This document shows positions 32,616 through 54,024 of a DNA stretch of 64,000 bases, piece by piece; position 1 is the stretch's first letter; every line of letters begins with the position of its first letter. A model generated the notes under the pieces. The model made no database searches. It saw nothing but the letters and a program-made list of their open reading frames with translations, and had not been told where the DNA came from. This stretch comes from Puccinia triticina (lineage: Eukaryota > Basidiomycota > Pucciniomycetes > Pucciniales > Pucciniaceae). A program made the translations under genes and the position numbers. The stretch is from positions 8,911,501 to 8,975,500 of the forward strand of contig NC_070559.1 in NCBI RefSeq assembly GCF_026914185.1, read 5' to 3'.

Positions 32616-33079
32616 TAATTGAAGTACATAACAGCTGGGAATTTAAGGCACCACTCCCCCTCTTAATCAGCTGGTGAACGTTATCGAAGAGAATCATCAA
32701 CCCAGATAAAAGAATGCTACCCAAGGTGAATCAAAAACAACACTCTCCCATTCCAGATCAAGTCTGGTCCCCAACAGGTGTCAATGTGTATAAGAAAATT
32801 TTTGGAATGAACGATCAGGATTTGAAGGCACACATCGGCAAGATAGCTCTCAAAAAATACGGCCAGTCAGCCAAACCCTTGCAGATTGATGCGGTGGCCA
32901 ACTTAGTCTCGGGCCAGAACACTTTTGTTCTAGCGGGTACAGGATTTGGAAAATCCCAAATAGCTGAAATATATTTTGGTATGATACCTATGAAGAAGAG
33001 CTCAGTCGTCCTCACCTTGAACCCGTTGGATTCCTTAGGTGACAACCAGGTCTATGAAAAACAGCAGGCTGGATTTACG

Positions 33080-33440
33080 CAACACTGGGTCGCTACGCTA
33101 AACTACGCTATTTGCCCACTATTATTGAGCGTAGCGATCAGATTTTACACCAAGATCTTCATAGTGTTAGTTGAAGTTGATTCTAGTTAAACTAACAGCA
33201 GCGTAGCGGAAATATTTTTTTCAGAATTATTTTCTTGCGCTAGCTTGAGCTAATCAAAGCTAAGCTAACAATAAGCGTAGCTTCTTCCTCGCTAAAAATT
33301 TTCTGACCAACAGGCAGCGTAGTTTGATTTGCGCTAACAGTTAGTGTAGCGTAGTTTGATTTGCGCTAATAAATAGTGTAGCGTAGCTTTCCCTCAGCTA
33401 ACTGACAGTGTAACGTAGTTAGATTTGCCCTGGCAGTTAG
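33080..33440. repeat. Left subterminal TAGCGTAG-rich region of the hAT element
   Basis: Repeated GCTACGCTA, TTAGCGTAG and TAGTGTAGCGTAG words in both orientations, mirrored at 45640-46060. Such subterminal repeats are typical hAT transposase binding sites; binding here is inference. Confidence 0.7.
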
Positions 33441-34827
33441 CGTAACTCAAATGAAGTTAGCGGCGACTTAATAATGGTACCTGCTGCAGCGGTCACTGGT
33501 CAGATATTGGTGGACTGACCTTGCACTGCCCATGACGCAAAAGATTGGGAAACCCGCACAGCGATGGGTATCGGAATCAAACAAGGGGGCACAGCCGAGG
33601 TGACACTTGCTGCAGTGCGCTGCAGCTTGACCGTTGCGCCAGATCCACATTGGCAACCGTCGTTGAAACAGTGTCTAGATACCACCGTCCCTGGGCAGTT
33701 TCAGGTTCGCTGTGTGTATGCATGTACGTCGCCCCTAGGCTGGCACTAACGTGGCTTGTTTCAAATTCTATGTACATACCTTGGATGAATCTTGAAACGC
33801 CTCGGCAGACCTGAAACAGTTCAGATTTTGCTGCAAAACACCGGGCCACTTTCTGAAAATTTTCCTGCTCATCTGCTCTCACCCGAACGTACTCGAACCT
33901 TCTCTCTGCCTCTCTGCCCCCAAATCCTTCGCAAGCGACCGCTCACAGGTCAAAAATTCATTGAAACAACACTCTGACCCCTACTTCTTTTCAAATTGAC
34001 TGAACATTCCATAGGCGAGATTGCTGGGGTGCTGCCGTTCCTTGTTTGCATCTTCTCAGCAGCTGGATTGATTTCCGCTTCAGTAAGCATATATATGTGT
34101 CTAAATCTTTCATCACTTCTCCTCGCTCAAACAATCACAAGTCATAACTCAAGAACCGTCCATTCTTTTTCATTTGGACCAGAAACCCAAGCATAGCGCT
34201 TCCATAAACCAACATAACACTCTTGCCGCTATCGTTTTGTTCAACTCCACTTCAGTAAGCATTTCTCCATAAATAATTGCTTCCATCGCGCAATCAATCG
34301 CAAATCATAGCTGACGAAAAACCTTTTGTATTTGAAATAGAAACTCAAGCATAACGCTTCCATCGACCAAAGTAAAACATTTACTGCTATTGTTTTTTCA
34401 CCTCAGGCTCTGCTTCAGTAAGAGTCTCCCCATCAATAACTGCTTCCATCACATAGCTCACGGACATTATGTTTCATTTGATCCAGAAAAAAAAGCATAG
34501 CGCTTGGCTCCTGTTACGATCTTGTGATTTCCTAACAGCTGGATAAGTTTCTTCTTTCGTAAGCATCTCTCCTTCTCATCATAGCTGCTCATTGTTCAAA
34601 CATCGACACCCATTCACTTTAAGTTGACCATGCCAACATGCTTATATCTTATTCATCACAGGGAGTGTGCATCCCACATCAAGTCCGCCATGGGTAAAAA
34701 CCGAAGGTATGGACACTCATCTATTCAATGGAATATCAATACTGATTGATAATTCTCTTGTCACTTCTGCTTTTTTTCTTTGATGGTTGCTTCTATTAAA
34801 ACTTATTACAATGACTATTTTGATTAA
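33441..34827. repeat. Non-coding segment with degenerate tandem repeat (34078-34600)
   Basis: No gene seen at 33441-34070. From 34078, CTTCAGTAAGCAT recurs at about 34250, 34420 and 34550 (period about 130-170 bp). The units share CAAGCATA.CGCTTCC, TTGCTTCCATC and TTTCATTTG.ACCAGAAA. It lies directly upstream of the TET-like gene and could be part of its leader or promoter; that is inference. Confidence 0.55.
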
Positions 34828-36048
34828 ATGATGGATCTCGGGTTGAAATCTGCCTGGGGACTTGAAATTATGTCTCATAGTCATAAAAATAAGAGTAGTA
34901 AAGCATCTCATCAAAGAAATAAGGCGAAGCAATTGAGGGAGAAATCAGCTTTGATGCAGGAAACTCTTGGTTTGAAGGAAGGGACGGTGATTCGTCATAG
35001 GATAAAATACGCCCCTCACAATCTCTATCCGAACATCCCTTGGGTCAACGGCAAACCAATCCGTGCTCCAACTGCCTCCGAAATTGCATCAGCATTTGAA
35101 CAAGTCAAATCATACCAAATGCTCACTTCTGGACTCAACATGATTCCAGATCCTCTCGACAAAACTTTGGTGATAGCTATTGTAGAATTTACTCCCTATG
35201 AAGAACTAACTGATTCTCAAAAGGAGGATCTCAACTATGTCTCTAATTTTCTTCACAAGTCTAAACAATTCATCAATGGTGTTAAATCTTGTTCCAGAGT
35301 TTGGGGTGGCCTAATGTGGGCCATTGGCTGGAGGAAGTTGTATGACGAGGACCAGATTGTGGGCCGGTACATCAAGGCGTTTGATGAAACCAAAATGCGG
35401 GCCTTCGATGAGCATTACGTCAAGTCTTCAAGAGTTGGTCAGATACTTGGAAATCTATTCAAGGATCTTGCTCGTACTCCTTTCCAAGACAACCAAGATC
35501 TCATGAAGAAGTATAACATCCCCTCATTTCCAGACCTTGCTTATGGCAAACTTCCCGAGGATTCGACATGCACTCCTCACATCACATTTACTACCAATGG
35601 CTTTTATAATCCCCCACACAAAGACGACAAAGATATATCCCAATGGGCCTTTGTCTTGTTTCTTCCAACTCGCACTTCCGATTACACTATAGTAGACTCC
35701 TCTGAATACAACATTACATCTGGACCTTTTATTTTTCCTGATCATCGTATTGGTATTAATTTTGACCATCATCATGGGATTGTCAAGATGATTTGGCAGG
35801 CAAATAGGTATACCCACTGTACTATGCCTCACTCTAAGAGCTCTCGATTTACTCGTCTTGGAATGTCTATTCAAATCAACTCCACTCTAGCTCTTACTTG
35901 TGAAAAATATATGAAGGGATTCTACCAAAATATTGCCCACTATTTTGGTGATCACTTCTATTACATGTTTTGTAGTATGGGTAGAAGTACTTTAATAGTG
36001 ACTTCAGTCACAATTTTGTTTTACTTTACTCTTTTCTCTTCTTTCTGA
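34828..36048 (+). CDS. TET/JBP-like 2OG-Fe(II) dioxygenase (transposon cargo)
   Basis: Single uninterrupted frame of 406 residues; a second ATG at 34870 (MSHSHKNK) is an equally good start. The basic N terminus (SHKNKSSKASHQRNKAKQLREK) could bind nucleic acid. The catalytic double-stranded beta-helix carries the iron-binding H264-K-D266 in FYNPPHKDDKDISQWAF, the distal H330 in ANRYTHCTM, and R343 in RFTRLGMSIQI for 2-oxoglutarate. Other conserved blocks are KMRAFDEHYVKSSRVGQILG, YNIPSFPDLAYG, CTPHITFTTNGF and GPFIFPDHRIGINF. These fit the fungal Tet-like family that oxidises 5-methylcytosine. A C-terminal hydrophobic stretch (STLIVTSVTILFYFTLF) is odd for a nuclear enzyme and may be a read-on artefact of a lost stop. 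No frame damage is seen, unlike the neighbouring mobile genes. Activity on DNA is inference from the family. Confidence 0.85.
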   Translation: MMDLGLKSAWGLEIMSHSHKNKSSKASHQRNKAKQLREKSALMQETLGLKEGTVIRHRIKYAPHNLYPNIPWVNGKPIRAPTASEIASAFEQVKSYQMLTSGLNMIPDPLDKTLVIAIVEFTPYEELTDSQKEDLNYVSNFLHKSKQFINGVKSCSRVWGGLMWAIGWRKLYDEDQIVGRYIKAFDETKMRAFDEHYVKSSRVGQILGNLFKDLARTPFQDNQDLMKKYNIPSFPDLAYGKLPEDSTCTPHITFTTNGFYNPPHKDDKDISQWAFVLFLPTRTSDYTIVDSSEYNITSGPFIFPDHRIGINFDHHHGIVKMIWQANRYTHCTMPHSKSSRFTRLGMSIQINSTLALTCEKYMKGFYQNIAHYFGDHFYYMFCSMGRSTLIVTSVTILFYFTLFSSF

Positions 36049-37276
36049 GATCTTTATGCTTGTAATCCCCAAGAATATTCTGATTCTAACTCCAGTATCC
36101 TATTTCAATTCAATTTGAGCCTTCATAACATATATATGTATTAAGAATTCATCAAAAGGGTGAGTTATGAGAAAGCAACTTGATTTTAGAGGTTTTCTGA
36201 GTTGGAATGAAATAGTATAAAAATGAGAATGTGCGGGAAAGCAGCCATGAACTCTATTAGCATAAAAATTGCCATCTAAGTAATAAAATTTTAAACCCCA
36301 TGATTACCAAAGATATACAATCAAACAAACGGGATGAGTGACTTCAATTGATCTGAATTGACTGAATACAGCATAGTGAAACTCAGAAATATTAAAATGA
36401 ATGTTAATACATTGTAGTTTCTATTCATATAAATAAGAACATGAATTCAGAAGACCATTTTAAGTCAATCAATAGTAACATATGCATGAGCTAAGAAATT
36501 AATTATTAACTCCCAGAAGTTTTATTTCTCAAATGAATGTGCATGGAATCTTAAAATTGAAAAAGTTTCAAAAGAAAATTTACTTTCAAAATATCCTTAA
36601 CATAGAATCATGATAGACTAAAATAAGCTAGGAAAGCCAACATTAGCATCATGATACTTGAAAGAATCAGGAATTTTATCTCTTGATTTGAATCAATATG
36701 GTTCAAGAGTGAACCCAGGTTTTTCAATCCAACTTACAACTGATCAACTCCTGAGTCCTAGAGTATGCCATTTTTTTTGGCAAATATCCCATGGAATGGA
36801 ATGATTTTAATGGAAGTGATTTTCATAGCATAGTTTAATATGATGGTTCATACTGTTCATTGACTCATTGAAAATTATTCCAATCACCACATAATTTTTA
36901 CAATAATTCTAAACAAGATTCAATATTAATGGGCTAGAAATAGACTAATGAAAGGGGTTCCCATGTGGAATTGAATAAATTATAAGTAAGAAGTTGTTTT
37001 CAGCAAAATATACATTTCTGTGAGGTGAATTTGAGCCTTCATATCAGACTATATTTTCTGGTGTGGGTCACAGATATTAATTTTATTTCCCGCAAAAACT
37101 ATGGGTAATTCATAGCTGTGCAGATTCCTCTGGCATTTTTTTTTCCCAAACTCGCGAGTTGCTTTCTGTCCGTTACATACCATTCTACACAACAAACAAA
37201 GTCAACTCCTGCTACTTTTTCCTCTTCCAGACTTTCCTTCCGACAAAGCGAAACAATCAATCAGTTCAATAAATTC
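36049..37276. other. AT-rich spacer inside the hAT element
   Basis: No coding sequence recognised. It separates the dioxygenase from the transposase. The last 150 bases lead into the transposase ATG and probably hold its promoter. Confidence 0.55.
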
Positions 37277-40200
37277 ATGTCAAGTCAATCTACCCAACAA
37301 GCTGGGTACACAAGCGATGCGTCTGAGGGCCGATTTCGTCGATCCTCAAGAGTCACCACCCCTATCAAAAGACCTGGAATGATTAACCCTTCACCAGATT
37401 CGCATCGTTCAATTACCCAGCCCCTTTTGTCGGATAGAACTTCAAGTACAACTCAACCCAGAAAACGAAAGGCACCCTCAGAGTTGGATTCAGAATCAAT
37501 ATCCCAAGACACACCCATTGCCACGAAACAAAAAGGGAAGAAACCAACCGCCTCAAGTCGCTCTCAAAGAACTCCCAGAAACTCCAAAGCACAATCTTCC
37601 CAGGCTACTGACTATATCCAAGACTCTGATGAAGAAAATTTGAAGGCACAACCAAAACGGAAAAGACGCAACCCCGAGTTTGACGATGCCAGAGATTTTT
37701 TTTCTGAGCCATTTCGTCGCAAGGATGATGTAAGTCTTAAGAAAAAAAATATTATTATTAATAACACAATAACTCATCATCTGGGTTTTTCTTTGAAGCC
37801 TTCTGATAAACCACCACAGACATACAGCTGTAGGTGGTGTAGCAAAGAAGTACGAGTCTCTCAAAGCAGTTTTTCAAATCTTCGTGCGCATCGTGATGGG
37901 TCTCGTCAGGGTGGAAGAGTTTCAGAAGGATGCCCAAAACGTCGTGATGCTATTGCTGCTGGTGCCAAGCTCCCTCCGACCACTCTTGAAGAAGACAGAC
38001 TGAAAAAGGCTGGTGGAAAACCTGGAACGATCACTCACCATTTTGCCCCAGTTGAAAAATTCAACAACGTTGTACTCAACCAGATCTTAACTCTGTGGTT
38101 GTCACTTCAAGCAATCCCTTGGACTCGAGTTGAGGACGCTTATCTGCGAGCGGTGTTTCACTACTGTCAAGCTGGTGCCAACCTGTTTAAGCAAAGATGG
38201 GCAGCTGATTTGGCTAGAACGGTGTACTTGGACTTACAAGCTGCAATGATCAAACACGTAAAAGTGTGTACTCTAATTTGATTGTTTTTGAGAAAATTAC
38301 TGACTAATTTGGTTGAAATGATCAATCATCAGGATACCGACAGCAATTTCAATCTTATACACAATGTGTGGACAACCAAAGGGAACCGTTTTGGATTCAT
38401 TGGCGCTTCGGTTTCTTTTATTGATAACGATTGGAACTACAATGTCCTCCATCTGAGTCTCAAACTTGTTGCTTGTCACCACCGAGGGAGCTTGTTGGCC
38501 GAGCCAGTTATCAATGTTTTGAAGAAGCATCAACTTCAGGGAAAGATAAGTTTTTTTTTTTGCTCTTGATAATATTTATACAATAAAAGATCCAAAATCT
38601 AATTGGGTTTCTTGTAAATACATGTTATGCTAGACTACAGATTCAGGCTCAAACAACGGTACAATGGCTTCAACAATGCACTCCCAATTGCTTCTCCTTG
38701 AAGGAACCGACGAAATCGAATGGGACTACAATACGATGCACATCAAGTGCTTTTGTCACAAGATAGCTTTGGTTGTTAATGCTGGTTTGAACGAATTAGG
38801 TCTTGAAGCCCCATCACCACCAAAGATCAAGAAATCTTTTCTTGGCGCTTTCCCCTACTCGGACAAGCTGGAACGAATCTTGGAAGAGGAGGATGAAGAT
38901 GCTGCAGATGGATTGGTAGAGGAAAGCGATGCTGGTGACGATACCGATAGCGATATTTATAACGAGGATGAGGATGATGTGGTAGAAGACGATGACGTGG
39001 TAGAGGACAATGAGTATTCTGAACCGGTTGAGAGAGAAGATAACGATAGAAGAAATAGGAAGGCTGGAAATAAGAGTAAATCTGCTACAAACAGGAACGA
39101 GTCTAATGAGTTGCATGATTTGACTAAAGCAGTAGGTTTACAGTCTTCTCTCTTCTATTTTTCTTCAATTTTTGTGTGCTGACTGAACTATTTTTGGGGA
39201 TATAGATTTTTACAAAGTGCCTTTTACAGGGTACAAGGCCCTGTAAAAGTTCTACATTGTAAAAGTAAAGAATAGACCGGTTTATGTGTAGTTTTACAAA
39301 GCGGCCTCCAGATTTGTCACCTTGCAAAGGGGGGCCTTGCAAAAAGTACATTGTAATAAACTACCGTCATTGCTCCATGCACAGTATTATGCGGCAGAGT
39401 TTACAAGGTAAACTCCTGGACACTCTAAATATCTCAATTGCGAGTGTGAAATTGAAATTTACTATGATACAGGCAAATATTTGTTTAGAGGGCTTGCAAG
39501 AATACAGATTCCGCCCCTCTTCATTAAAAATACAAGCATGCTGCAATTTGCACTGTACATCTCTGCTTCACAGTTCTAGATGTGTATCAACGAGATGAGC
39601 TTGTGTCTCGGTCGGAGCCATCAATCTCCACCTGTCTTAATCCATTTGATCCATCCTCTGAAAACATAAGGACTGTGTCCCTTGCCCCCAGCCCACTTCC
39701 CCTCATCCGGACCCCATTCTGTCCGGCTATTCCAATGACCTCTTCCAAGTTAGACCCCGACCCCCCAGGGTCAAACCCATCAGACATAGCACTTTCAAAT
39801 CCGTCAAGCATAGTTACAAACCCTTCGAGCACAGTTATCAAATGGGAGCTGCCGTTAGATTTTGAATCTTTCCATACCTTCATAGATCATGGATGCACTC
39901 TTGACCGTGAAAACTACCCAATATACCCCAACGGTGCCACAATCTTTGTCAAATCAGCCGATCAGACTGTTGTTAATTTTGGATCCGTTGGATTTACTAA
40001 GACCACCGGAGTGGAGAAGCGAGCAAAAGGCACCTGGAAAATCCAGCGGGTCTATTGCCTTGGTGCCCTGGTCTGCGATATGGACACCTGTCAGTGGGTA
40101 GGCTCCCCCCCAACTGCAAGAGGAGGCATCCAAGATTACCTTGAAACGTGAGTTTTTCCATGCTGTCTTTTATTTATACTCTTCATTTTCCATTTCTGAC

Positions 40201-43200
40201 ACCATTTATTGTTTTGGATTAATTCAGTACCCCGAAGTGCCCTGGAGCTGCTGGCAGATGCCCTGGGACAGTCACGTGGGTCGCTTGTGAAGGGACAGCC
40301 ACTCGCTTCGACTTCCATATCCCATCTGGCTGGGCGCTGCTCCGACATCGAGGTGTGCACGATCATCCATGGCCCGAATCCAAGAAATCCAACCCCCTTG
40401 CACGTGCAGATCTCAAAGCTGAGATTGTCAAGAACCCAACCAAAGGTGCTTTCAAGTTAAAGGTCAGGACCCTTGTTTTTTGATCAATAAGCATTTTTCA
40501 AACATGAATTCGTGCCTTTTTTGGTTTAAGATGGGACAAGCCGATTGTCTTGATGATCCTCTCACCAGTGTGACCAATATTCACGGGTCTCTGGTGAACG
40601 CCGACCGATTGCAATACTACCGGCGTCTTATGCTGCGAGAGCTCAACATCGTTCCGGACAAGTTGGGCGCGGGTGTTGGTGACAAGTTTTTGATGGACAT
40701 GTTCCAGTGGAACAAGTCAGTCTCTTCTGATCTGGCTTCAGGGTATATATCATGTTTTATTGTGACCTTCACTTACTCGTCACATTGTTTTATTTGATTA
40801 GGCGTGGGCTGCTTATAATTTCGTGTGGATTTCAAAGCGACTGCGAGCATTTCTCCTTTCAAACCAAGTGGATGGCCAATCGATTGTTGGCCCGAGATGA
40901 AAATAACAACGTCTATCAGGGTGGCCTAATATCTGATGTGACGTACAGATTTTTCAAGAATGGATATCTACTCACAACTTCGATGTTCTGCGAGCAAACG
41001 GCCAGGTGGATTCCGGTACAGCTTTCGTGGATTCGAGGTCTCAGCACCAGCTACTACAAATTGCATTTCTCGGCACTCTTACGGCAGTTTGTTCGGCCCG
41101 AAATTACCCCCTCTGAGCGTGATTTGATGGTTCGCCAAGTCGTTGATTTCTCGCTGGCACAAACGGAGGGCTTCAAGGCAGCGTATATGGAGGTCTTTGC
41201 ATGTTCGGACCCGATGAGAGCGGCTAAGATGATTAAGGGGTGTCACCAGCACTTCCGTGCTCAGGTGACCAGAGTGAGGCGAAACCAATCGATCCTCTCA
41301 GCAGATCAAGATGTAAGATCTTTCCTTTTGTCTCTTAAATCATCTCATTCTTAGGTTCAAGCCATCTGACAAGTTTGAATCAGGCCGACTTCCAAAATAA
41401 ATGCATGGCGTTACTAGATCCAATCGAGCAAGATGGTCCTACACACAAGGAAAAGATTGACGAGATCCGCCGCCTTTTCCCCAAGACAAAGCGCTGGCTG
41501 AACTGGTGGACCATGTCCGATGTCCAATCGATGCTTTTTCCCTCTCGTTGACCAATGTTGGAGGATCATCCTGATGGTGATGATGGACTTCCCAATACTA
41601 CGAACGCCATCGAAAGTATGCATAGGGTCTACTACATGATAAGGTGAGGGACTTCTAGCTTCCATATTCGTTGATACCAAGCCAAATTCTCACTCCAATT
41701 CTCATTCTCATTTGAACTGAAGCTCGGGGAAGAAATGCCTAATGGTAGGCATGGTGGAGCTCTTTGGGTTTGTCAATGTGTTGGAGGAGGAGTTCAATGC
41801 TGTCATGTGCGGGGTATCTGTCGAATACGGATCTCAAACGAAAATGCAGGTCAATATTACACACTCGATGGGCTGGGCCAAACCCAAGAAGCGCAAATTT
41901 ATCAATGATGGTCGGCCGCCCGATACCACTGCTGCCCTTCTGGACGGACCCGATCCTTCAACCAAGAAAAAGAATCTCGGCCGTCCAAAGAACTCTCAGA
42001 ACGTCGACCGAAGCAAGTGGTCAACCTACCAATCCTACGCAGCCTCCTCTGAGGAACACCTGAGGAACCAATGTTGGATGTCCGCTGCAATGGAATCGTT
42101 GTTTGCCCTCTACAATCCCCTCTGGCTTCGCAACAGTACTGGGAAAGGTGCAACTCTTTTTTACCATCTTGTTGTCCACTTTGGATCTCGAACAACCTTC
42201 AACCTGACCAAGATTGGAAGAATCCGGACCGTCTTGACCAACGGGCAGTCGAAGCTCTTCAAGATATGCAATGACAGGCACCAAGCGAATTTTCAGCCGG
42301 GTACTTTTGCATCGTGTGATTTTTTCTTGGAGCTTCTTTTGGATCCAAAAATCAATCCGACGAAGGCTCTGAACGGATTATTTGAACTCGTCGAGCACCG
42401 GAATTTTGTGTGCAACTCTGCTAAGCCATGCCTAGACCCACAAGTCCGATTGATCACAACAATCAAAGTTGAACGTAAGATGTTCCAAGAGAACAATGTC
42501 GCCGATTCGGACGTATCGGCTCTGATTGATCTTTGGACAACTACCGGACTGTCCAAATCACCCGGACTTGTTTGTCAATGCGGATCGGTCGTGGCATCCA
42601 TTGAGCAGAAGCCCAAAACCAGAGGACGGCCCAAGAAGGTCAAAAACGAGGATCTCAAACCAGAAGTCACGGTTGTACCTCAAACGACGAGTGATCCAAA
42701 TCGCTTGGTTCAATATGTGCAGGAGAACTCTCGGCTAGCTTTCAAAGACGAGCTGCCTCCTCAACATCTCTATTTCTTTCTCAAAGTCACCTCAATCACC
42801 AATCCAATTGAGCAGCAGCAATACATGCGTTCAATGGATTGGCCATACCAACTGAAGGTTGGCGGCGAGTCATACACTCTATTCTCGCGAGGCTTCTGGA
42901 ACGGATTCCACTACTGGTGCAAGGTGCTCCGGAGTGGTCGCAGCAGTACAACTGGCGTATGGTTGCATGACAATCAGCAAAATGAAGGTATTGCTCGACT
43001 TGTCAACACAGATCCCTCATCCATTGGGGGCTGCCATCCTTTCACCAGTTTCCTCTTTTACTCCCGTTGCTGGACTGCTTGCGAGGAAAAATATGTCCTG
43101 GATTCTATCAGCAAGATAAAAGCCGATCACCCAAATGCTGAAGGCGACGCCCCCTTTGTCAACTTAGGCAGCCTGATCAAACCACAACTCAAAACCGCGG

Positions 43201-45331
43201 CTAGCAGCCAAGTTGTCAAACCTCTAGAAGACGGCGACTACGTGGACAACTTTGACGAGGACGCTGAAGAAGAATCCGAAGCTAGCGATCTAGATTGCGA
43301 GTCAGACAACAACTCAAGTAGTGCCAAATCCAACTCGGGTGACAAAGACAACACCAAATCTGACTCTGGTGATGAGGACAATACCAAGCTGGTCTTGCAT
43401 CCAGTCGAACCCGCCCCAAAAACCATCAAGTTGAAGCTCAGAATCCAGTCGCAGCCTGCGCATGACATGGTTGCTGGTACATCCAAACAGCCCAAATCGC
43501 CCAACCCGACCGCTCCTCCTTCGGCCCAAGCTGATCAACCTCTGTCCCCCAATGAAGGCAAGCCAACCACACAAAGGAGCAGGAGGACTTCCGCCAAGAA
43601 GTAACTGCTCGGACTTTTCTATTTTTCATATCTTTTTGTCATCTATTTTCAGTAGAAAAGCACTTTGTAATTTCATTTAACAGCTTGTAAAATTCATTTT
43701 ACAGCAACTTGAATGTTATTTTGCAATTTCCATTTCACAAAGTGGCCCTCACCGCTTGTTAATCTCCACTTTGGAGGCAAGAAATTGGGTTTTACAGGGA
43801 CCTGTTGTTACAAAGTTCCACCCCGCAAATGCATAGCTTGTAAACTTGCACATAGAAAATTCCATGCTGATTTTCACAAGGCTGCATTCACAGGGCCCCC
43901 CTTTGCAAGGTGACAAATCAGGAGGACCCATTGTAAAACTACACATACCCCTGGCTTTTCTTTACTTTTACGCTGCCCTACTTTTACAGGGCCCTGTACC
44001 CTGTAAAATGTACTTTGTAAAAATCATCTGCCCCCTATAAAAACAGTTGGACTTTGTAGTAAAAAAGATAACTGGATCGTGTGTATGGAGACAGGAATTT
44101 GACCGTCGTGCAGCAGGGAAAAACTTGAAGGGTCTGATTGCAGGCTACGGAATCCGCTGGAACATAAAATATCAAAGCCGACAGCGTGCCTATGACGCAA
44201 GAGAAGTAAGTATTTGCGCTTCAATTAGCATTAAAATTAAAATTTATCACTGATAGACTTGACTGTAGGTTATCAATGCAATGCTCCATGATGAGTATGT
44301 TAAATATCAAGATCAAATTTCCAAATCAATTCGTAAAGAAAATCGTAAAAGTTTGGTCACTTTAAGGAAATTCAGTTCTCAAATAAAGAATGGTTGATGA
44401 TTAAAGAATTGAACGAGGAGTTGGAAGTAAGATAAAAAATTACAAAAAACGTATATATGACTTTTTTCAATAAGCTGATTTTTTTATCAGCCTTTCAACC
44501 ATCTCACCAAATTAATGGAGGGTGACGGGGCTACAGGTGCTTTTGTGTTGCCAAATTACTATCAAACAATTAACGATTTGAAAAGGAAAGAGGAAGGATC
44601 CGACCGCGGAGATGCATTGCATCCAATGTATATCAAAATGATCGAAAAGCTCAAGACTTACCAGGACGAGGCGCTTGAATGTGAAACTCTTGTCATGGCA
44701 ACGATTCTCCATCCAACATTCCGATTGAATCTTTTCACACATTGCTGGCCTGAAAAAGCTGACGAGGCAAAGAAATTATTGGAGCGACACTTTTTCAAGC
44801 GAGATGATATACTAAAACAACGTAAAGCTGAAGATGAAAACAACTTGAAGAAAAAGACTCCAACGATTGATCAAGATAATATCTTTGAGCTATTCAGTGC
44901 TTCAGCCGCCGAAGAAAGCAAAGAGCTTGAAGTTTACATAAAAAACATGGATCGCCTACCAGGACCAAGTGCAAAAGATCCAAAGGCCCTGTTGGTATGG
45001 TGGAAGGTGTGTTTTTTAATAAACCCTTTTCAATTTGGAAATTACACTCATTTTTCACAACCTACAGGATCATTCATCAACTTATCCCGTTCTTGCATCC
45101 TTGGCAAAGGACTATCTTGCTTGCTCAGCATCTTCTTGTGCGGCCGAGCGTATCTTTTCTTCTGCTGCTGATGTCTGCTCAAGTGGGCGCGGTAGCTTAA
45201 TACCGCGTACTATTGAGCGATGCGTTAGTAGTAATCTCTGGCTCAAAGAAGGCGTACAAGTTACAGGAAGTTTTTCAAAAGCACAAAGTATTGTTTCTGC
45301 TTATACTGAATTTTCTGAAAACCAAAAGTAA
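37277..45331 (+). CDS. hAT transposase with BED zinc finger, split by an intron-borne MULE
   Basis: Exons as read: 37277-37729, 37799-38257, 38333-38549, 38641-39131, 44047-44205, 44269-44298, 44376-44426, 44491-45006, 45068-45331. Total 2640 nt, 879 residues. ATG 37277 (MSSQSTQQAGYTSD) opens a low-complexity basic N terminus. A BED-type finger follows (YSCRWCSKEV..FSNLRAHRDG). The RNase-H-like core shows NLIHNVWTTKGNRFGFIGAS, the SGSNNGTMAS block and HIKCFCHKIALVVNAGLNEL, then a long acidic insert. After the MULE-bearing intron come DFVVKKITGS..RQEFDRR, FSNKEWLMIKELNEEL, and the C-terminal hAT dimerisation segment STYPVLASLAKDYLACSA, AAERIFSSAADVCSSGRGSL. The 44299-44375 segment may be a 77-nt intron or a one-base frameshift. 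Otherwise no premature stop is seen, so the gene may still be expressible if the 4.9 kb intron is spliced. Confidence 0.85.
39206..44024 (+). mobile_element. MULE-like transposon (4.8 kb) nested in an intron of the hAT transposase
   Basis: Long TIRs of more than 150 bp: ATTTTTACAAAGTGCC..TTTTACAGGGTACA at the left matches the reverse complement of the right end (..CAGGGCCCTGTACCCTGTAAAATGTACTTTGTAAAAAT). Further in, GTGTAGTTTTACAA..GGCCTCC.GATTTGTCACCTTGC is shared. No clear target duplication was seen at the borders. The single gene inside encodes a DDE transposase with extra domains. Confidence 0.85.
39735..43604 (+). CDS. MULE-like transposase fused to a USP-like cysteine protease
   Basis: Exons: 39735-40147, 40228-40462, 40531-40742, 40802-41312, 41384-41643, 41723-43604. 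Total 3513 nt, 1170 residues, with one internal TGA (41549-41551, in FPSR*PMLEDH). The N-terminal zinc-binding region resembles WRKY/GCM1 fingers (YCLGALVCDMDTCQW, KCPGAAGRCPG, GWALLRHRGVHDHPWP). The DDE core follows: GGLISDVTYRFFKNGYLL, RWIPVQLSWIRG, VVDFSLAQTEGF, MIKGCHQHFRAQVTRV, and TTNAIESMHRVYYMI with the catalytic Glu. The C-terminal 500 residues hold a Cys box (NQCWMSAAMESLFALYNPLW, C661) and a His box (GFWNGFHYWCKV, H940, then GVWLHDNQ), spaced as in C19 ubiquitin proteases. A Ser/Asp-rich tail with an SP-rich end closes the protein. The lone TGA fits a CGA to TGA change, so this copy may be inactive. Confidence 0.8.
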
Positions 45332-46060
45332 TATTTTTCAAGTATTTTTCTCACTGTTTTGCACGTCTGAATCAAGTTTTTCTTACCTACAAAAAAAATC
45401 ACATAAAAAATCAGACAAAAAAATCATGGAAAAACAATTAGAAAAAAAACAGATTGATGTTATGACTAGTCTTATTTCAACTTTTTCCACATCCCCAACC
45501 ACAAAAAAAAATCCCCTTTCTATGTTCATATTTACTTCCCTGCACACCCAATTACTTGTTTTTTCAAGTAATTGATTGTGCCGGTTTCATATTGGGTATC
45601 CAGAAAATATTGATTGGTTAGATTTAGTGCAAGTTACGCTAAGATTTAGCGCAAGTTACACTAAGATTTAGCACAAGTTACACTATGATTTAGCACAAGT
45701 TACGCTAGGTGTTAGTACTTAGCGTAGCTGATGTAATCGCTACGCTAATACATAGCGTAGCTGATATAATCGCTACGCTCATACATAGCGTAGCTGATGT
45801 AATCGCTACGCTCATACATAGCGTAGCGTTCTGAGTCGCTAAAACCGCTAAATTTCAGCAATCATAATTTTTTTTAAGCGTTAACTTCCTTCTCCTCATG
45901 TCAGCTAACACTACGCTAACAGTTATTTTATTTTTTTTGAAAAAAAAATAGTGTTAGCTGTCAATTTTGAGCGCTAACAGTAACTTTGGTGTAGCGTAGC
46001 TAAAAAAAGCTAACACTACGCTGCGCTACAGCTATTGTTAGCGTAGCTGACCCAGTGTTG
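45332..46060. repeat. 3' spacer and right subterminal repeat of the hAT element
   Basis: 45332-45640 is AT-rich with no gene. 45640-46060 carries repeated GCAAGTTACGCTAAGATTTA and CATAGCGTAGCTGATGTAAT units, then inverted GCTACGCTA/TAGCGTAGC words up to the TIR. It mirrors the left subterminal region. Confidence 0.7.
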
Positions 46061-47374
46061 ATTTACGGCAATCAACTTGAATAAGTTAAACTTCAACAAA
46101 AAAACGGCGGAGGATATATTGAAAGGGGTCTATCAATTTGTCTATTTGAGCCCGGAGATCCTCTTGAATAATAAGCTGTGGGAGGAAGTATACTTTGGCT
46201 CCAAATTTCAAAACTGACTCGGCCTAGTAGTGGTCAATGAGGCTCATATGATTTACATATGGGGCCTTGTCAAGAGTCGACCCGGAAGACATCTAGCTAC
46301 AATTTCAAGTCGTCTTGAGGACTTTGGGATCTTTTGACCATTGTATGGACTCCTGGGAGGCCATCTCCTGTCTCAAAATGACAAACCAATCTTACTTCTA
46401 TCTGCTACATGCCGCCCTGTTGCTGTTGAGGCTATCAAGAAGAGCCTCAAACTGGGAGACTCAAACGTCGACATTATACGTGGCAAGCTAACACAACCCA
46501 AAATCCAAATTATCCGTGTTCCAATGGATCACTCTATGGTTTCTTGTCATGATCTAGTCAAGGTCTTCCCTTCAGCTAATAATGTCCCAAATGAAGAGCT
46601 GGTGCCCTCTCTTGTCTACAGTGGCTCACGCAACCGGACCTTAACAGCCTTAGACGTTATTAGCATGGCCTGCGAGACTCCTGGTGAATCTTCAAATCCT
46701 AAAAGTAGTTGTGCTCAACAATATCACTTGTGCACCAGAGAACAAGAGAAGATTGATTGCGTGGAGGATTCCTCAACTGGCAAGTTCCCAATTATCTCTT
46801 GCACAATGGCGCTGGGTCTGGGGCAGAACTGGAAGCGGGTACGGATGGTGGTCCAGCTTCAATAGTTCAAATGGTTGGGCGGGCTGGTCACGATGGAAGG
46901 CCTGGACTTGCCATTCTATTTGTTGAGAAGATCCGTTGCAATGGGAAGAACTCTGCGGACGATTTCAAAGAAGGCACCACCCAGTCAGACAATGACCGGA
47001 TGGATGCCCTTGCAATAACACCTGTTTGCTTGAGAATTGCTTTCTCAATTGACAACCTGTACGCGCACATAACTAAAAGCTTCAGCATACTTTATTCATC
47101 TGCTCATCTATTCTTCTTTACAGGCTAGGATATATTCCACTCCGAGTCGATGACCCAAATTGTCTGGCTGAAAAGGAATGGGAGGAATCGGAAGGGTTTG
47201 ACCCCTGCTGCTGTTCAAACTGTGACGGCCCTAGTACCAGCCCGCCATCCCTGGGTACCGCGGGCACATTACCTCTTACCTCATTTGGCTGGGAGGTAAC
47301 AAGGTAAAGTCCCAGGGTACCCCAGCCATAACATTTGGATTTCCCAATCCAGCTGAAAATCGTCGTTGTGTTAC

Positions 47375-47750
47375 CTCGAGGTAACCCAAAGTGTTACCCA
47401 GGTAACCAAAAGTGGTACCCAGGTAACCAAAAGTAGTACCCAGGTAAACCCAGGTAACCAAACGTTTCACCCAGGTAACTCAAGGTGTTACCCAGGTAAC
47501 CAAAGATGTTACCCTTCTAGCCAAATTTGTTACCCAGGTGACCAAAGGTGTTACCCAGGTAACCAAAGGTTTTACCTGGGTAACCGAAGGTGTTACCTGG
47601 TTATCCAAAGGTTTTACCCAGGGTGTTACCCAGGTAACCAAAGGTGTTACCCAGGTAACCAAAGGTGTTACCCAGGTAAACACAGGTGTTACCCAGGTAA
47701 CCAAAGGGGTTACACAGGTAATCAGAAGTGTGACCTGGGTAACAGAAAGT
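47375..47750. repeat. 21-bp minisatellite
   Basis: About 17 degenerate copies of TGTTACCCAGGTAACCAAAGG. Each contains the palindrome GTTACC-CAG-GTAAC. Seven codons per unit keep frames open on both strands (QVTKGVT in one, TWVTPLV in the other), so the apparent proteins are artefacts. Confidence 0.9.
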
Positions 47751-49058: not shown

Positions 49059-49159
49059 GCTCACGAGCGTGGCAAGAAGTAGAGTTTTCAAGAATCGCGG
49101 TAGTAGAACCCTCGGAGGTGCACAATTGGGAGGACTTACTTTTACTCCTCTGTGCCTCT
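49059..49159 (-). promoter_or_regulatory. Junction hairpin motif, copy D (after integrase stop)
   Basis: On the minus strand: GAGGCACA, then a loop region with AAAAGTAAGT, then TGTGCACCTCC, and about 80 bases later the box GCCACGCTCGTGAGC. The integrase stop TAA lies inside the hairpin. It is one of four copies in the element. Confidence 0.6.
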
Positions 49160-51004
49160 GCGCGAAAAATACCTCTTCACCTGATCAGCTGAAAACCGGC
49201 GTGCCAAACGCGTCCCATCGAGTTCCTCCAGCACGTAGGAACCGCCGTGAACCTGCTGAACAACCCGAAACGGCCCCGCCCAACGGTTGGCAAACAATTT
49301 GCCCCACTGGGTCTCCAACGCTCGATTGTAAGCCAGAACCATTTTGCCAGGTTGCAAGGGAGTTCGGAGCCGCGCTGCATTCTTCTCTTCCCAGTATCTG
49401 ATCGACTCTTCGTGCATTCTCATCATCTTGCGGTGCGCCAGATCGCGCACTTCTTCACTCCTTTCCAGCTGCCGAGAGCGCGCTGTAAGAAGATCTGCCG
49501 TGTCTTGCACCTCGTCCCAATCGATTCCCAAATAAGATTCCATTTCCAGATCTATAGGAAGCACGGCCCTCTGACCAAAAACCAACTCGTACGGCGAATA
49601 GCCCGTCGAGCGCTTCGTTGAGATCCTATCAGCGAACAGAACCAGTGGAAGATGCCTCCGACAGTGTTTCCCGCTTTCGCCGGCGAGTTTTACCAAGGCC
49701 GCTTTGAGAGGAGCATGGCCGCGCTCCACCATTCTCTGACCCTCAGGATAATAAGGGGTGGATACGCGATGCTGGCCCGGCAATGAGCGCAACATCTCCG
49801 CAAGCTGACCGCCAAATTCCGATCCACCGTCCGTTGAATACGAGCGCGCCAACCCATAGCGCATGGTCCAATGCTCATGGAGAAACGTGGCCACACCCTC
49901 CGAACTGAGAGTGTTGAGAAACTTCGCTTCCACCCACCCGGAAAAATCGTCGCGAGCCACAATCAGATACTGCGCTCCAGCAGCCTTGACGTGTACAACA
50001 TCCATAGCCACCCGTCCAAAAACCGCGCTCTTGCCCGTAGGACCGCGTACTTCCATTGGTCTGCGGAGATCGCGCTTTTGGCAAGCTTCACAACTCTTGC
50101 ACCAGCGCACAACGGATTTCTTCAACGCGGGCCACCAGAACCGCTCCGCAATGCGCCGGTAAGTTTCTGTTTCGCCTCGATGGCCAAGATTTTCGTGCAA
50201 GCTCCGCAGTATTTCATCTTGTTTTTCGACGATAGTGACGACGATCCGCTGGCACGGAGAGCCTCTTTTCATGAGCCTTCCTGCATGCACAAAAAAATCC
50301 ACAGACTTGCGTTTGAGTGCCCGAAAATCTTCCGCGTTCATGTCCTCCGGGATCTTGAGCTCCAACAAATACCGCTCCAACTGCCGCCAGAACCCTTGCT
50401 GATAACCGGAATACCCACCATCGGCCCCCACCAAACAGAATCCTCTCGGCCTGATATGGGGCTCCTCCTCGTCAAACTCGGTATCCGGAACCACATCCCC
50501 TTTTCCCATGGGCCGCCGCGACAACCCGTCCGGCATCGTGAAAGACTTCCCAGGCTGATGAACGATTTCAAACGAGAACAATTGAATGAAAGCCACCCAA
50601 CGCGTCATAGGAGCATTGGGCAAGCTTGGCGCGTTGATCATCTCAATCAGAGAGTGCGCATCAACCTGTAATTCAAAGAACTGACCCCACAGCACCGTTT
50701 GCAACTTCTTAAGGATTCGAGCAACACCACACAATTCAAGTTTTGGCTGTGAGTAGCGGGATTCGACGTCTGTGAAAAGGAGGGATTCATACAGCGCGGG
50801 ACGGTCTAGACCATTAGCATCCTCCTGCGTAAGAACCGCCCCAGCCGCATGAAAGCTAGAGTCCACTGCCAATTTGATTTTGCCTGCCTCCGGTCCATAG
50901 GTGATCTTGACGAGAACTATGTCTTTCCCTACAATTGTTTTGAGCTTCTCAAAGGCTGCGTCGCACTCCGCTGTCCAAATCCACTCGGCGTCTTTGCGTG
51001 TCAA
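49142..51004 (-). CDS. RNase H and integrase part of gypsy pol
   Basis: 620-codon frame that is in phase with the upstream RT frame but separated from it by one TGA (51008-51010). The N-terminal RNase H has KLAVDSSFHAAGAVLTQE, LELCGVARIL and FELQVDAHSLIEM. Then comes the integrase zinc domain HENLGH..CKSCEAC, and the catalytic core with D in VAMDVVHVKA, D in YSTDGGSEFGG and E in GQRMVERGHAPLK. It ends in a basic SH3-like tail (GPFRVVQQVHGGSYVLEELD..RLARRFSADQVKRYF). There is no chromodomain. RNase H trims the RNA template and integrase inserts the cDNA. All integrase active-site residues are present. Confidence 0.92.
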   Translation of the reverse strand: MTRKDAEWIWTAECDAAFEKLKTIVGKDIVLVKITYGPEAGKIKLAVDSSFHAAGAVLTQEDANGLDRPALYESLLFTDVESRYSQPKLELCGVARILKKLQTVLWGQFFELQVDAHSLIEMINAPSLPNAPMTRWVAFIQLFSFEIVHQPGKSFTMPDGLSRRPMGKGDVVPDTEFDEEEPHIRPRGFCLVGADGGYSGYQQGFWRQLERYLLELKIPEDMNAEDFRALKRKSVDFFVHAGRLMKRGSPCQRIVVTIVEKQDEILRSLHENLGHRGETETYRRIAERFWWPALKKSVVRWCKSCEACQKRDLRRPMEVRGPTGKSAVFGRVAMDVVHVKAAGAQYLIVARDDFSGWVEAKFLNTLSSEGVATFLHEHWTMRYGLARSYSTDGGSEFGGQLAEMLRSLPGQHRVSTPYYPEGQRMVERGHAPLKAALVKLAGESGKHCRRHLPLVLFADRISTKRSTGYSPYELVFGQRAVLPIDLEMESYLGIDWDEVQDTADLLTARSRQLERSEEVRDLAHRKMMRMHEESIRYWEEKNAARLRTPLQPGKMVLAYNRALETQWGKLFANRWAGPFRVVQQVHGGSYVLEELDGTRLARRFSADQVKRYFSRRGTEE

Positions 51005-51007
51005 TCG

Positions 51008-52951
51008 TCAAAGAGGGAGACAAATTTGCGACAGCGCGGGGATAAAGATCCGCACATAAACCACGACTCCCAAAAACCCACAAATCTCCGATGCGTTGAT
51101 GGGTGTCGGCCAGGAAAGAATTTTATTGATCTTTGTTGGGGCCATCTTCCGTCCTTCTTTGCAAACGACATGTCCAACGATTTCCAGGGCCGGCACACAC
51201 GCCGCCAGCTTTGACGCCGACACCGTAAGTCCGCTTTCCTCAATCCGAAAAAGAACCCGCTCCAATACTGTTGCATATTCCCAAATGAAGCGCCGGATGC
51301 CGGAATGCCAAGCCAGAACTTTGCCACCGTAGTCGGACTCCGGGCCCTTAATGCCCCCATCATCAATAAAAATACCCGCATGATCAGGGATCTCCTCCTG
51401 GAGGATCCACATCATCTGCGCCTGGTACACAGCGACAGAATTAGTGGCCCCTTGAGGCAGACGGGTGAGCTGGAAGCGACCTAGCGGCGTCTCAAATGTG
51501 GTAAGTGGCCGGGAAATGGGGTCCAGGGCGCGCTCGTCGTAGCCTCCCATAATGTCGCCCAAACCGTAGCAAGCCCGGCCCGCGAAAGATTTGACGAACT
51601 CCTCCGTGGCTGGAGGCACTCCCGCGTCTTTAATGGTTACCCGATTCAACGGCTGAAGATCGTGCACGACTCGCAACTTTCCATTGCTTTTGAGTACACA
51701 GAATACCGGGGACGTGTAGCTTGAAGTGGATTGCTCATAGAGTCCGGTGTCGATGCGCTCTCGGATAACTTTGATATATTCATCCAATTTAGCTGCCGGT
51801 ATGGGAATTTTTCTCTTCTGCCAAGGCTCATGCTCCACAACCGGGATGATGTAAGGCATGCCATATGACTCCTTCAACAAGCCGCGCTCCGCCGCAGTAA
51901 AAGCTATCGCCAGATTACGCTCAGCCAAGACATTTTTGATCAAGTTCAGCTCATCGGGCCAAAGCCAGCCATCAGGGCCAAAGTTCACCACTTTGAGCCT
52001 CTCTTCGGTGACACAGCCTTGAGGGACAAAAGGGCCGGCGAGAGTGCGTTGAAGGCCACGATATGGATCGCGCGAAAGAGGAGGACGGCGCAACGGGGGG
52101 TTAAGATCCTGTGGCATAGCTTGATTAACGGGGCGTATCTTCTTCGAAACTGGTTTGTATTTCGTGGCGAACGTCAGAAATCCGCCCTCCGCCCAAGCGT
52201 CCAAAAGCGCCCGCTGCTCTGCAAGCCGAAGACCGTGCTCCATCAAGAACCAGGTGCGATGCTCCGCAAAATCCTCGAATGCGGACTTCTCTGCGAAAGC
52301 AAAACCAACAGAACGTCCTTTGCTCACGAGTGTGGCACGCGGTAGGGTACGACAAATTTGAGGAGCATCACGCCTCGGAGGTGCACTTTGGTTGGAACTT
52401 ACTTTCAGTCCAAAGTTCCTCCACGGTGCCCCAAAAACAACCTCTCCTCCTTCACACCCAACCTTCCACGAAAATAGTTTACCCTCTTTTCGGAGTAGGT
52501 CCGAAAACGTTGCCGGGACGCCTAAAAGGGATGAAGAAACCGGATCCAAATGGTGGCTCACGAGAGTGGCACGTGGTAGGGTTTTCGAAAACAGAGCATC
52601 TTGCCCGGAGGTGCATAATTGGATGGAACTTACTTTTGTTCCCCAATTCCTCCGCGTACAACCCTCATCCTCCACTATGCCCTGAGAACCCGCCGCCCTC
52701 GAGCCCGAAGAAAAACCAGAAAAGGAATGAAAAGAGACAGAATCGGAGAGTGAACCACAACCGGAGAGAGCCGAAATGTTTTTGATGTTTTGAGTGATTT
52801 TCTTGTGTTTTTGTGAATTGTTGTTTTGAGCGTGAGACGAGGAAAGAGAATGAAAAACGGGCTGTTGAATCTCTTGAACGTGAGTTGATCCAGTGGCGCG
52901 AGTACAAGATTCTAGATTAAAACGGCCACTTCCCAGATCAACTTTGCTCAT
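51008..52951 (-). CDS. Gypsy reverse transcriptase with a 5' leader-like extension
   Basis: Overlaps the protease frame by ATGA at 52948-52951. About 250 codons at the start look unlike protein (Ser-rich, with two copies of the junction hairpin). The RT proper begins near EKSAFEDFAEHRTWFLMEHG. It shows YIIPVVEHEPWQKRKIPIP, SPVFCVLKSNGKLRVVHDLQ, LTRLPQGATNSVAVYQAQM, and the catalytic HAGIFIDDGGIKGP (FIDD in place of YLDD). It continues with GHVVCKEGRKMAPTKINKIL. The frame ends at TGA 51008-51010 inside what should be a continuous LPL..RLTRKDAEWIW connection. It copies the genomic RNA into cDNA. The 5' 600 nt may be a leader or an intron rather than coding. Confidence 0.88.
   Translation of the reverse strand: MSKVDLGSGRFNLESCTRATGSTHVQEIQQPVFHSLSSSHAQNNNSQKHKKITQNIKNISALSGCGSLSDSVSFHSFSGFSSGSRAAGSQGIVEDEGCTRRNWGTKVSSIQLCTSGQDALFSKTLPRATLVSHHLDPVSSSLLGVPATFSDLLRKEGKLFSWKVGCEGGEVVFGAPWRNFGLKVSSNQSAPPRRDAPQICRTLPRATLVSKGRSVGFAFAEKSAFEDFAEHRTWFLMEHGLRLAEQRALLDAWAEGGFLTFATKYKPVSKKIRPVNQAMPQDLNPPLRRPPLSRDPYRGLQRTLAGPFVPQGCVTEERLKVVNFGPDGWLWPDELNLIKNVLAERNLAIAFTAAERGLLKESYGMPYIIPVVEHEPWQKRKIPIPAAKLDEYIKVIRERIDTGLYEQSTSSYTSPVFCVLKSNGKLRVVHDLQPLNRVTIKDAGVPPATEEFVKSFAGRACYGLGDIMGGYDERALDPISRPLTTFETPLGRFQLTRLPQGATNSVAVYQAQMMWILQEEIPDHAGIFIDDGGIKGPESDYGGKVLAWHSGIRRFIWEYATVLERVLFRIEESGLTVSASKLAACVPALEIVGHVVCKEGRKMAPTKINKILSWPTPINASEICGFLGVVVYVRIFIPALSQICLPL
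52322..52422 (-). promoter_or_regulatory. Junction hairpin motif, copy C
   Basis: On the minus strand GGAGG-A-ACTTTGG, loop with GAAAGTAAGT, CCAAAGT-GCA-CCTCC, followed by the GCCACACTCGTGAGC box. The ACTTTGG/CCAAAGT stem replaces AATTGG/CCAATT of copy B by paired changes. Confidence 0.6.
52556..52653 (-). promoter_or_regulatory. Junction hairpin motif, copy B
   Basis: On the minus strand GGAGG-AATTGG-GGAAC, loop AAAAGTAA, GTTCC-AT-CCAATT-ATGCA-CCTCC, followed by GCCACTCTCGTGAGC. It lies about 300 nt after the protease/RT overlap. Confidence 0.6.
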
Positions 52952-54024
52952 AAAAAATGACGACCCTCATTCGAGTCGTCGCGAGTCTTCCCCATCTTGG
53001 TCAGAACCGCTTTTCGCCCCTTCCCGGGGAAATCCCGCTCCCACCGTCCAGCATCCGTCGCACAAAGAGAAATCTCGATCTGACGTCCCTCCGAATCCGG
53101 CAAAAGGATCTTCTCGCCACCTCGCCCCGAAAAGGCGAGCGTAGCCTCAAAGTCAATGAGGAAGGGGCGTCCCAGGATCAATGGTCCTTCCGCTCGCGTG
53201 ATCCAGAAATGGCAGGAGCCCACGATCGTACGTCCTATTCTGATCTGGACGTCCTCGGCGACTCCAACCAATTCACAGGACTGATTACCAATGCCGTAAA
53301 CCGCAGAGCTAAAATTAACGCGCGGGCTAATACTGAACTTATTAGCCATCGCCTCCGAGATCAAATTCAACTGAGATCCTGAGTCTACTAAAGGGGAAGC
53401 AGAACTCTCCTCATCACCAATTAGACAGGGAAGAAATCCTAGGGGGCACGAGTACAAGTGCGATCCCCCTCCCGGCCCCTCCGGGTCAGGTCCCTCCGCC
53501 AACAACGTGCCAGTCGCAACCTTCAAATCCTCAGCACCAATCTCCACGCGCCTACGCGACACCCACTTCTTGATGCCTTCTGCCATTGCGGGAGAAATCG
53601 CCAAAAGTTCCGAAACCGTCACGCCGGGCACCGGAAGATCGGAAATTTTCTTCAACATGCCCTCGACCGCGTGAGGGTGATCCTTGGTGATTCCACGCTC
53701 GAACCGAACCTTTGGCCCTGCTGCAGCCGGCTTCGGAGATTGCCCAACTTCTTCAGGCGCCTCTACCGGTGCATCTTCCGGCGTTGAAGCAGGAACGCGC
53801 TCAAACAACTCAGGCTCCGGCTCCATGTCCTCGACGTCCGATCCAGGATGAGGAGCCGCGCCCTTACGAATAGGTCTTCGTGCAGCGGAAGGGGGAACTG
53901 CCGGCGCCTTGTAAGGCTTCGGAGCCTCGTGCTTCTTCCGCGCCGGATCCGCTTGGTAAACTCCAGAATAGGTTTGCGAAGAAACGGCCGGGGGGTACCA
54001 TGGCTCCAAGGAACCACACGTGGC
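52948..54024 (-). CDS. Gypsy aspartic protease frame
   Basis: In the same frame as gag, directly after the TGA at 54025-54027. A Pro/Glu-rich linker of about 200 residues leads to a retropepsin-like domain with the active site SPLVDSGSQLNLIS. Further on are VYGIGNQSCELVG and the helix GPLILGRPFLIDFEA. The protease would cleave the polyprotein in the particle. The frame ends CAT TTT TTA TGA at 52959-52948. The heptamer T TTT TTA just before the stop would move ribosomes by -1 into the RT frame at ATG AGC. Confidence 0.85.
   Translation of the reverse strand, partial: ATCGSLEPWYPPAVSSQTYSGVYQADPARKKHEAPKPYKAPAVPPSAARRPIRKGAAPHPGSDVEDMEPEPELFERVPASTPEDAPVEAPEEVGQSPKPAAAGPKVRFERGITKDHPHAVEGMLKKISDLPVPGVTVSELLAISPAMAEGIKKWVSRRRVEIGAEDLKVATGTLLAEGPDPEGPGGGSHLYSCPLGFLPCLIGDEESSASPLVDSGSQLNLISEAMANKFSISPRVNFSSAVYGIGNQSCELVGVAEDVQIRIGRTIVGSCHFWITRAEGPLILGRPFLIDFEATLAFSGRGGEKILLPDSEGRQIEISLCATDAGRWERDFPGKGRKAVLTKMGKTRDDSNEGRHFL

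What the first reader, a model, noticed from the sequence alone, without database searches (positions are those of the whole stretch)
33080..46060. TET/JBP-like DNA dioxygenase carried as cargo inside a hAT transposon
Seen: an intact 2OG-Fe(II) frame with H264xD266, H330 and R343 lies between hAT terminal repeats that have a 7-bp duplication, next to a BED-finger hAT transposase on the same strand. Known: TET/JBP genes in basidiomycetes are expanded and were linked to KDZ-type transposons (Iyer and colleagues). Inference: here a hAT element has taken up the enzyme, perhaps to oxidise 5-methylcytosine on its own copies and escape silencing. The enzyme frame is clean while most neighbouring mobile genes carry stops, which suggests selection or recency.
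Basis: partly seen in the sequence, partly recalled or inferred. Interest (0 to 1): 0.88.

Follow-up and report, generated by a model that had tools for sequence, protein, structure and literature searches.

The report
Rust transposon carrying a TET-like dioxygenase
In a wheat leaf rust genome, a cut-and-paste transposon of the hAT kind with 7-base target duplications carries a TET-like DNA-oxidising enzyme as a conserved passenger gene; this kind was published in 2025, and the copies compared here show the enzyme was kept by selection but give no sign that it spares the element from methylation-linked mutation.

Summary
A 12,981-bp element (33080-46060) with matching CAACACTGGGTC ends and a 7-bp duplication contains an open 406-codon TET-like frame upstream of a hAT-type transposase, same strand. 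The genome is Puccinia triticina. Of 14 transposase hits of at least 50% identity, 12 have the gene; one exception is 5'-truncated, the other a complete TET-less element. So it is heritable cargo. It is also already known: Kojima (December 2025, PMC12730594) named TET+ hAT7 elements in six Puccinia species, P. triticina included. Added here: TET is under purifying selection between subfamilies (omega 0.16, as for the transposase) but not among recent copies; TET and transposase halves differ in age (mosaic); TET+ copies show TCG-to-TTG hypermutation as strong as two TET-less families (ratio 1.14, 95% 0.59-2.18), so no lasting protection is seen; the fold matches CMD1 and TET2, with the 5mC-contact Asp kept but two other base-contact positions changed to Gln and Asn. 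Desilencing by demethylation remains likely but unproven.

The parts
33073..33079 (.). left copy of 7-bp target-site duplication ATTTACG
33080..46060 (+). whole TET+ hAT7 element with nested insertion
   Evidence: termini and TSD; 12 of 12 TET+ copies bounded alike
33080..33460 (+). left terminal/subterminal region, CpG-rich, 5 GCGTAGC/GCTACGC in 381 bp
34828..36048 (+). TET-like 2OG-Fe(II) dioxygenase frame (probable start 34870), PF20515
37277..39131 (+). transposase 5' exons (zinc-finger exon to the exon ending LHDLTKA)
   Evidence: start codon and splice sites inferred by eye
39196..44034 (.). nested transposon with 135-nt inverted repeats, in a transposase intron; not part of the hAT element
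   Evidence: uninterrupted site in seven other copies
44047..45200 (+). transposase 3' exons (PF14372 part; dimerisation region by homology to L020)
   Evidence: splice sites by eye; an intact frame was not shown
45610..46060 (+). right subterminal repeats (9 GCGTAGC/GCTACGC in 451 bp) and terminus
46061..46067 (.). right copy of 7-bp target-site duplication
32678..33079 (+). interrupted helicase-like gene, 5' part (3' part continues after 46067)
   Evidence: Pfam DEAD and Helicase_C, both just under cut-off; repeated family

Best explanation
A TET+ hAT7 DNA transposon of Puccinia triticina: transposase plus a PU-type TET/JBP dioxygenase gene carried as a stable second gene. Shown: the gene lies inside the termini in all 12 TET-transposase copies found, multiplied with the element and was kept by purifying selection about as strong as on the transposase. 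Inferred: the enzyme oxidises 5-methylcytosine in CpG sites deposited by the fungus's methyltransferase and so keeps the element's promoters or CpG-rich subterminal repeats usable long enough to transpose. Each inserted copy is then free to decay, and does, to a large part by C-to-T at TCG. Anatomy and cargo status about 0.97, selection for the element's own benefit about 0.9, 5mC oxidation for desilencing about 0.5; the figure below is for the whole chain.
Against: No protective effect on mutation: TCG-to-TTG over background is 46.6-fold in TET+ and 40.8-fold in TET-less families. One complete family member has no TET match (L022). In the 29-row alignment R343 is Arg in 19 of the 23 rows that reach it, so some relatives may be inactive. 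Two base-contact positions differ from known TETs (Gln and Asn where CMD1, TET2 and NgTET1 have Phe/Tyr and His/Arg), so the substrate could differ. No UDG-type glycosylase exon was found, though that search is weak. No expression or activity data.
Confidence: 0.6

Rival explanations
1. Passive passenger: the TET gene was trapped and rides along with no benefit to the element.
For: Recent copies decay about neutrally (omega 0.78-1.08); a TET-less complete relative exists (L022).
Against: TET omega 0.11-0.20 between subfamilies (transposase 0.12-0.16), over distances where dS runs from 0.5 to saturation; gene order and strand unchanged in 12 of 12.
Confidence: 0.05
2. The enzyme acts in trans for many elements, not for its own copies; selection is at the level of the element family, or the marks it makes are regulatory.
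For: TET+ and TET-less families show equal hypermutation within a wide interval; about 99 TET-like places were found in this genome, a lower bound; Kojima cites oxidised cytosines over several TE classes in Coprinopsis.
Against: Selection is seen within one element family, which needs some benefit in cis or by kin.
Confidence: 0.25
3. The enzyme makes a different modification (another base, or a CMD1-like adduct) that works as a mark for the transposase or against nucleases.
For: Best fold match is CMD1, tied with TET2; QxN in place of the aromatic and His/Arg that touch the base in CMD1, TET2 and NgTET1.
Against: Arg343 is kept in 13 of 13 own copies and the CMD1 Trp that blocks 2OG has no Trp counterpart here (Leu/Met in 29 of 29 rows, by offset); the 5mC-contact Asp is kept.
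Confidence: 0.15
4. Chance nesting of an independent TET-bearing transposon in a hAT element.
For: Nesting occurs here (a second transposon sits at 39196-44034).
Against: Same position and strand in 12 of 12 copies at different sites, down to 52% TET identity; no inverted-repeat pair of 20 nt or more flanks the gene.
Confidence: 0.01

Closest known systems
TET+ hAT7 DNA transposons of Puccinia (Kojima 2025, Biology 14:1741, PMC12730594)
   Same: hAT transposase, 7-bp TSD, PU-type TET gene, P. triticina among the hosts; the paper gives TET upstream of transposase in the same orientation for three P4-lineage families
   Different: Nothing in kind. Whether this very family is in its Table S1 could not be seen. 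Four selection terms have 0 hits in its main text.
TET/JBP genes linked to KDZ transposons (Iyer et al. 2014, not held; as cited in PMC12730594)
   Same: TET/JBP gene with a fungal DNA transposon
   Different: KDZ transposase; 8-bp TSD for Zisupton and the Dileera element named there
CMD1, TET2, NgTET1, CcTET (solved structures)
   Same: fold; Fe-binding HxD...H; Asp five after the first His as in CMD1
   Different: 8-14% identity in the structural alignments; two base-contact positions differ

Membership tests
hAT7 (Kojima 2025) | 7-bp target-site duplication | tested here: met
   12 of 12 TET+ copies and the TET-less L022
hAT7 (Kojima 2025) | hAT-type transposase | tested here: met
   PF05699 over cut-off in L020 and L022 pieces; PF14372 just under cut-off in window and L020
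hAT7 (Kojima 2025) | place within the hAT7 clade of the published tree | not tested
   the published sequences (Data S1, Repbase) were not available
hAT superfamily, canonical | 8-bp target-site duplication | tested here: not met
   7 bp in 12 of 12; Kojima reports 5-, 6- and 7-bp hAT groups
hAT superfamily, canonical | BED zinc finger | tested here: inconclusive
   no Pfam match on three N-terminal pieces; Cys/His pattern by eye
TET/JBP dioxygenase, PU type | Tet-like domain with HxD, distal His and Arg | tested here: met
   PF20515 E 2.8e-67; residues
TET/JBP dioxygenase, PU type | oxidises 5-methylcytosine (shown for no PU-type enzyme in what I read) | not testable with these tools
   fold match only
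KDZ transposons | 8-bp TSD (given for Zisupton and a Dileera element) | tested here: not met
   7 bp

The most novel reading that the evidence does not exclude
The enzyme's target is not the silenced gene body but the element's own ends: these are CpG-rich (CpG o/e 1.19 and 1.38 in the window element against 0.61 and 0.82 inside), built of GCTACGC/GCGTAGC repeats whose CpGs avoid the hypermutable TCG context. The TET would keep or mark these presumed transposase-binding sites so that transposition is licensed, possibly with altered base recognition (QxN), without sparing the rest of the copy from hypermutation. Against it: the TET-less relative L022 has a left end of the same make-up.
Probability: 0.12. 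Interest if true: 0.75.

Novelty: already known. Interest (0 to 1): 0.4.

Why it matters
It confirms, in one chromosome-scale assembly and with full termini, that a methylcytosine-eraser-like gene is a heritable part of a hAT transposon, and adds evidence not found in the main text of the 2025 paper: the gene is under purifying selection like that on the transposase. It also gives a check of the proposed benefit (protection from C-to-T hypermutation) on three TET+ and two TET-less groups, which came out negative within a wide interval, and so narrows what later work should look for: a transient, trans-acting or end-specific effect.

Tried and rejected
Chance nesting: rejected. One capture or several: a TET tree of 35 rows needs 4 label changes for hAT7, but the transposon context of the 25 P-numbered rows is unknown, so it decides nothing. 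Gain or loss in the TET-less L022: the transposase tree is an unresolved fork of A, B, C8 and L022. Sequence search of the PDB with the TET protein gave two matches up to E 1, both read as chance (E 0.42 and 0.73), and with its alignment none. UDG search: no match, but exon-split genes are easily missed. The TET-less copy C4x (L010): sequence upstream of window position 36143 is unrelated, and a search with the left half found no piece of it near that place, so it looks 5'-truncated. One search used one transposase segment (B) in a wrong frame; its figures were replaced. L040 was dropped from the TET-less hAT control because it is only about 80% identical to the others. One search used 99 of 104 TET pieces and 125 of 126 transposase pieces (second pieces of one locus left out). 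Viral, plasmid, phage and prokaryote collections were not searched, as the host is a fungus.
Full report
What is there. The window is G000:C2:8911501-8975500 of a 122.8-Mb, 18-contig genome. Protein P0007 (Puccinia triticina PtA15_10A524) lies on a contig of 7,045,429 bases, the length of contig C10 here, so the genome is taken as P. triticina. The element spans 33080-46060 with ends CAACACTGGGTC...GACCCAGTGTTG and the 7-bp duplication ATTTACG. Left to right: subterminal repeats; TET frame 34828-36048 (PF20515, E 2.8e-67); transposase exons; a nested transposon; more transposase exons; right subterminal repeats. It sits in a helicase-like gene (Pfam DEAD and Helicase_C, both just under cut-off; 'RecQ-like' is my reading) belonging to a large repeated family (150 matching pieces).

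The nested transposon (39196-44034) has 135-nt inverted repeats, 86% complementary, and many relatives in the genome. Seven hAT7 copies (C16a, C4x and the five A2 copies) are uninterrupted at this site, which lies just before the 3' splice site of a transposase intron, judged by eye. No Pfam family scored over its cut-off on three of its frames.

A six-frame search gave 104 TET-like pieces and a search with the transposase N-terminal part 126 pieces, both lower bounds. Of 99 and 125 used, 12 TET and 12 transposase pieces pair on one strand with 1.05-2.17 kb between them; three further transposase pieces have a TET piece within 20 kb, the nearest at 7.2 kb. Transposase hits of at least 50% identity number 14; 12 have TET. 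The exceptions are C4:3943164, which looks 5'-truncated, and C8:194965 (L022), complete with termini and duplication CTCCAGG but no TET match. All 12 TET+ copies have both ends and a perfect 7-bp duplication: the window, nine (CTCAGGC, CTTTTAG, AGAGGAT, GTCCAAG, ATTGAGT, CTTGTAC, ATTGTGG, CCTCTGC, CTCGAAT), C3 (GTGCGGG) and C8 (CTCAATT, one end CAAT for CAAC). A 477-bp element with the same ends sits inside the C16a copy (duplication ATAGCGC). The other TET-like places (87 of 99) were not placed in transposons here, apart from brief looks at L023 and L024.

Selection. Groups: A1 = window, C16a and truncated C4x; A2 = C6, C11, C4, C10, C16b; B = C18, C3, C2a, C2b; C8 alone; C5s a solo TET. Nei-Gojobori estimates, mean dN over mean dS; pairs are not independent. 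TET: A1 v A2 omega 0.16 (dS 0.647), A v C8 0.20, B v C8 0.18, B v C5s 0.11, A v B 0.13 with dS saturated in 17 of 28 pairs. Transposase: A1 v A2 0.16 (dS 0.240), other between-group means 0.12-0.16, dS saturated in 3 of 4 pairs for B v C8. Within groups TET 0.78 (1 pair), 1.08 (10), 0.82 (6) and transposase 0.86 (3), 0.66 (10), 1.02 (6). So constraint acts while lineages transpose and is weak or gone after insertion. In the 13 own TET copies H264, H330 and R343 are unchanged; D266 is N in C18. Four of 12 TET+ copies have a full open frame; 7 have one in-frame TGA at Arg positions, as CGA to TGA would give (codons not checked one by one), and C11 a frameshift.

Mosaic. Between the window and C6, synonymous differences are 109.8 of 258 sites in TET but 75.5 of 366 in the transposase (Fisher p 6e-9; C16a v C10 p 5e-9), and the stretch 33340-34688 has no BLAST match between A1 and A2. 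The TET half and the transposase half therefore seem to have different histories, best read as recombination between elements.

Hypermutation. Singletons within near-identical groups, by context: A2 40 of 143 TCG sites C-to-T, B 26 of 138, A1 (36.6-39.19 kb, three copies, one of them TET-less) 20 of 51. TET-less controls: five copies of a transposon related to the nested one, 3.2-kb parts, 14 of 111; five copies of a TET-less hAT family, 2.5-kb parts, 13 of 40. Against non-CpG singletons the ratios are 44.2, 40.2, 68.5 (TET+) and 51.9, 48.1 (TET-less); pooled 46.6 v 40.8, ratio 1.14, 95% 0.59-2.18. No protection is seen, within a wide interval. That the controls lack TET rests on the absence of a hit in their neighbourhood in the capped list; one control copy (C17:1229868) has a TET-like place about 8 kb off. 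This bears on Kojima's suggestion that the enzymes counteract such hypermutation; it does not exclude effects in trans, or before or during transposition.

Setting. A methyltransferase-like gene lies at C3:6466826 with BAH (24.2 bits, under cut-off) and C5-methylase (29.4 bits, over cut-off) matches. CG methylation of young TEs is reported for P. graminis (PMC8444563, passages).

Known or new. Kojima 2025 (PMC12730594: outline and abstract, section 3.4, section 4.1, most of 4.2, and passages) describes 20 TET+ families from six Puccinia species, P. triticina included, with 7-bp duplications, named hAT7. The kind is therefore already known. Searches for 'hAT7' and for TET with transposon terms showed no other description among the rows listed (6 of 6; 20 of 158; 12 of 335; none found). 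What I did not find in what I read of that paper: a selection analysis, the mosaic, the TET+ v TET-less mutation comparison.

Ends. CpG o/e is 1.19 and 1.38 at the window element's ends against 0.61 and 0.82 inside, and TCG makes up 8 of 84 CpG contexts at the ends against 117 of 366 inside; the four other TET+ elements looked at (C6, C10, C18, C2a) show the same trend. L022's left end is alike; its right 450 bp is not.

Noticed in passing
window 56302-60847: Satellite array: 159-bp unit, 28.6 copies, 93% matches, giving long mechanical minus-strand frames
   Followed up: no
window 47368-47743: 21-bp tandem repeats just after the helicase gene remnant
   Followed up: no
window 49142-52966 (-): LTR-retrotransposon frames: RVT_1, RNase H, H2C2 and integrase domains; further minus-strand frames to 55149 not identified
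   Followed up: partly
window 32678-33079 and 46068-47120: Interrupted helicase-like gene belongs to a repeated family with 150 matching pieces in the genome, five at 84-87%
   Followed up: partly
window 22099-23928 (+): Cyclic nucleotide phosphodiesterase frame, PF00233 E 1.5e-31
   Followed up: no
L009 2084-2560: 477-bp element with the same CAACACTGGGTC ends and 7-bp duplication ATAGCGC, nested in the C16a copy: a short TET-less relative
   Followed up: partly
A1 v A2 elements (window, L009, L012-L016): TET is synonymously about 2.7 times more diverged than the transposase: mosaic elements
   Followed up: partly
G000:C5:578386-579573 (L023): Solo TET of the B kind with two stops and no transposase match of this family in the 10 kb fetched
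   Followed up: partly
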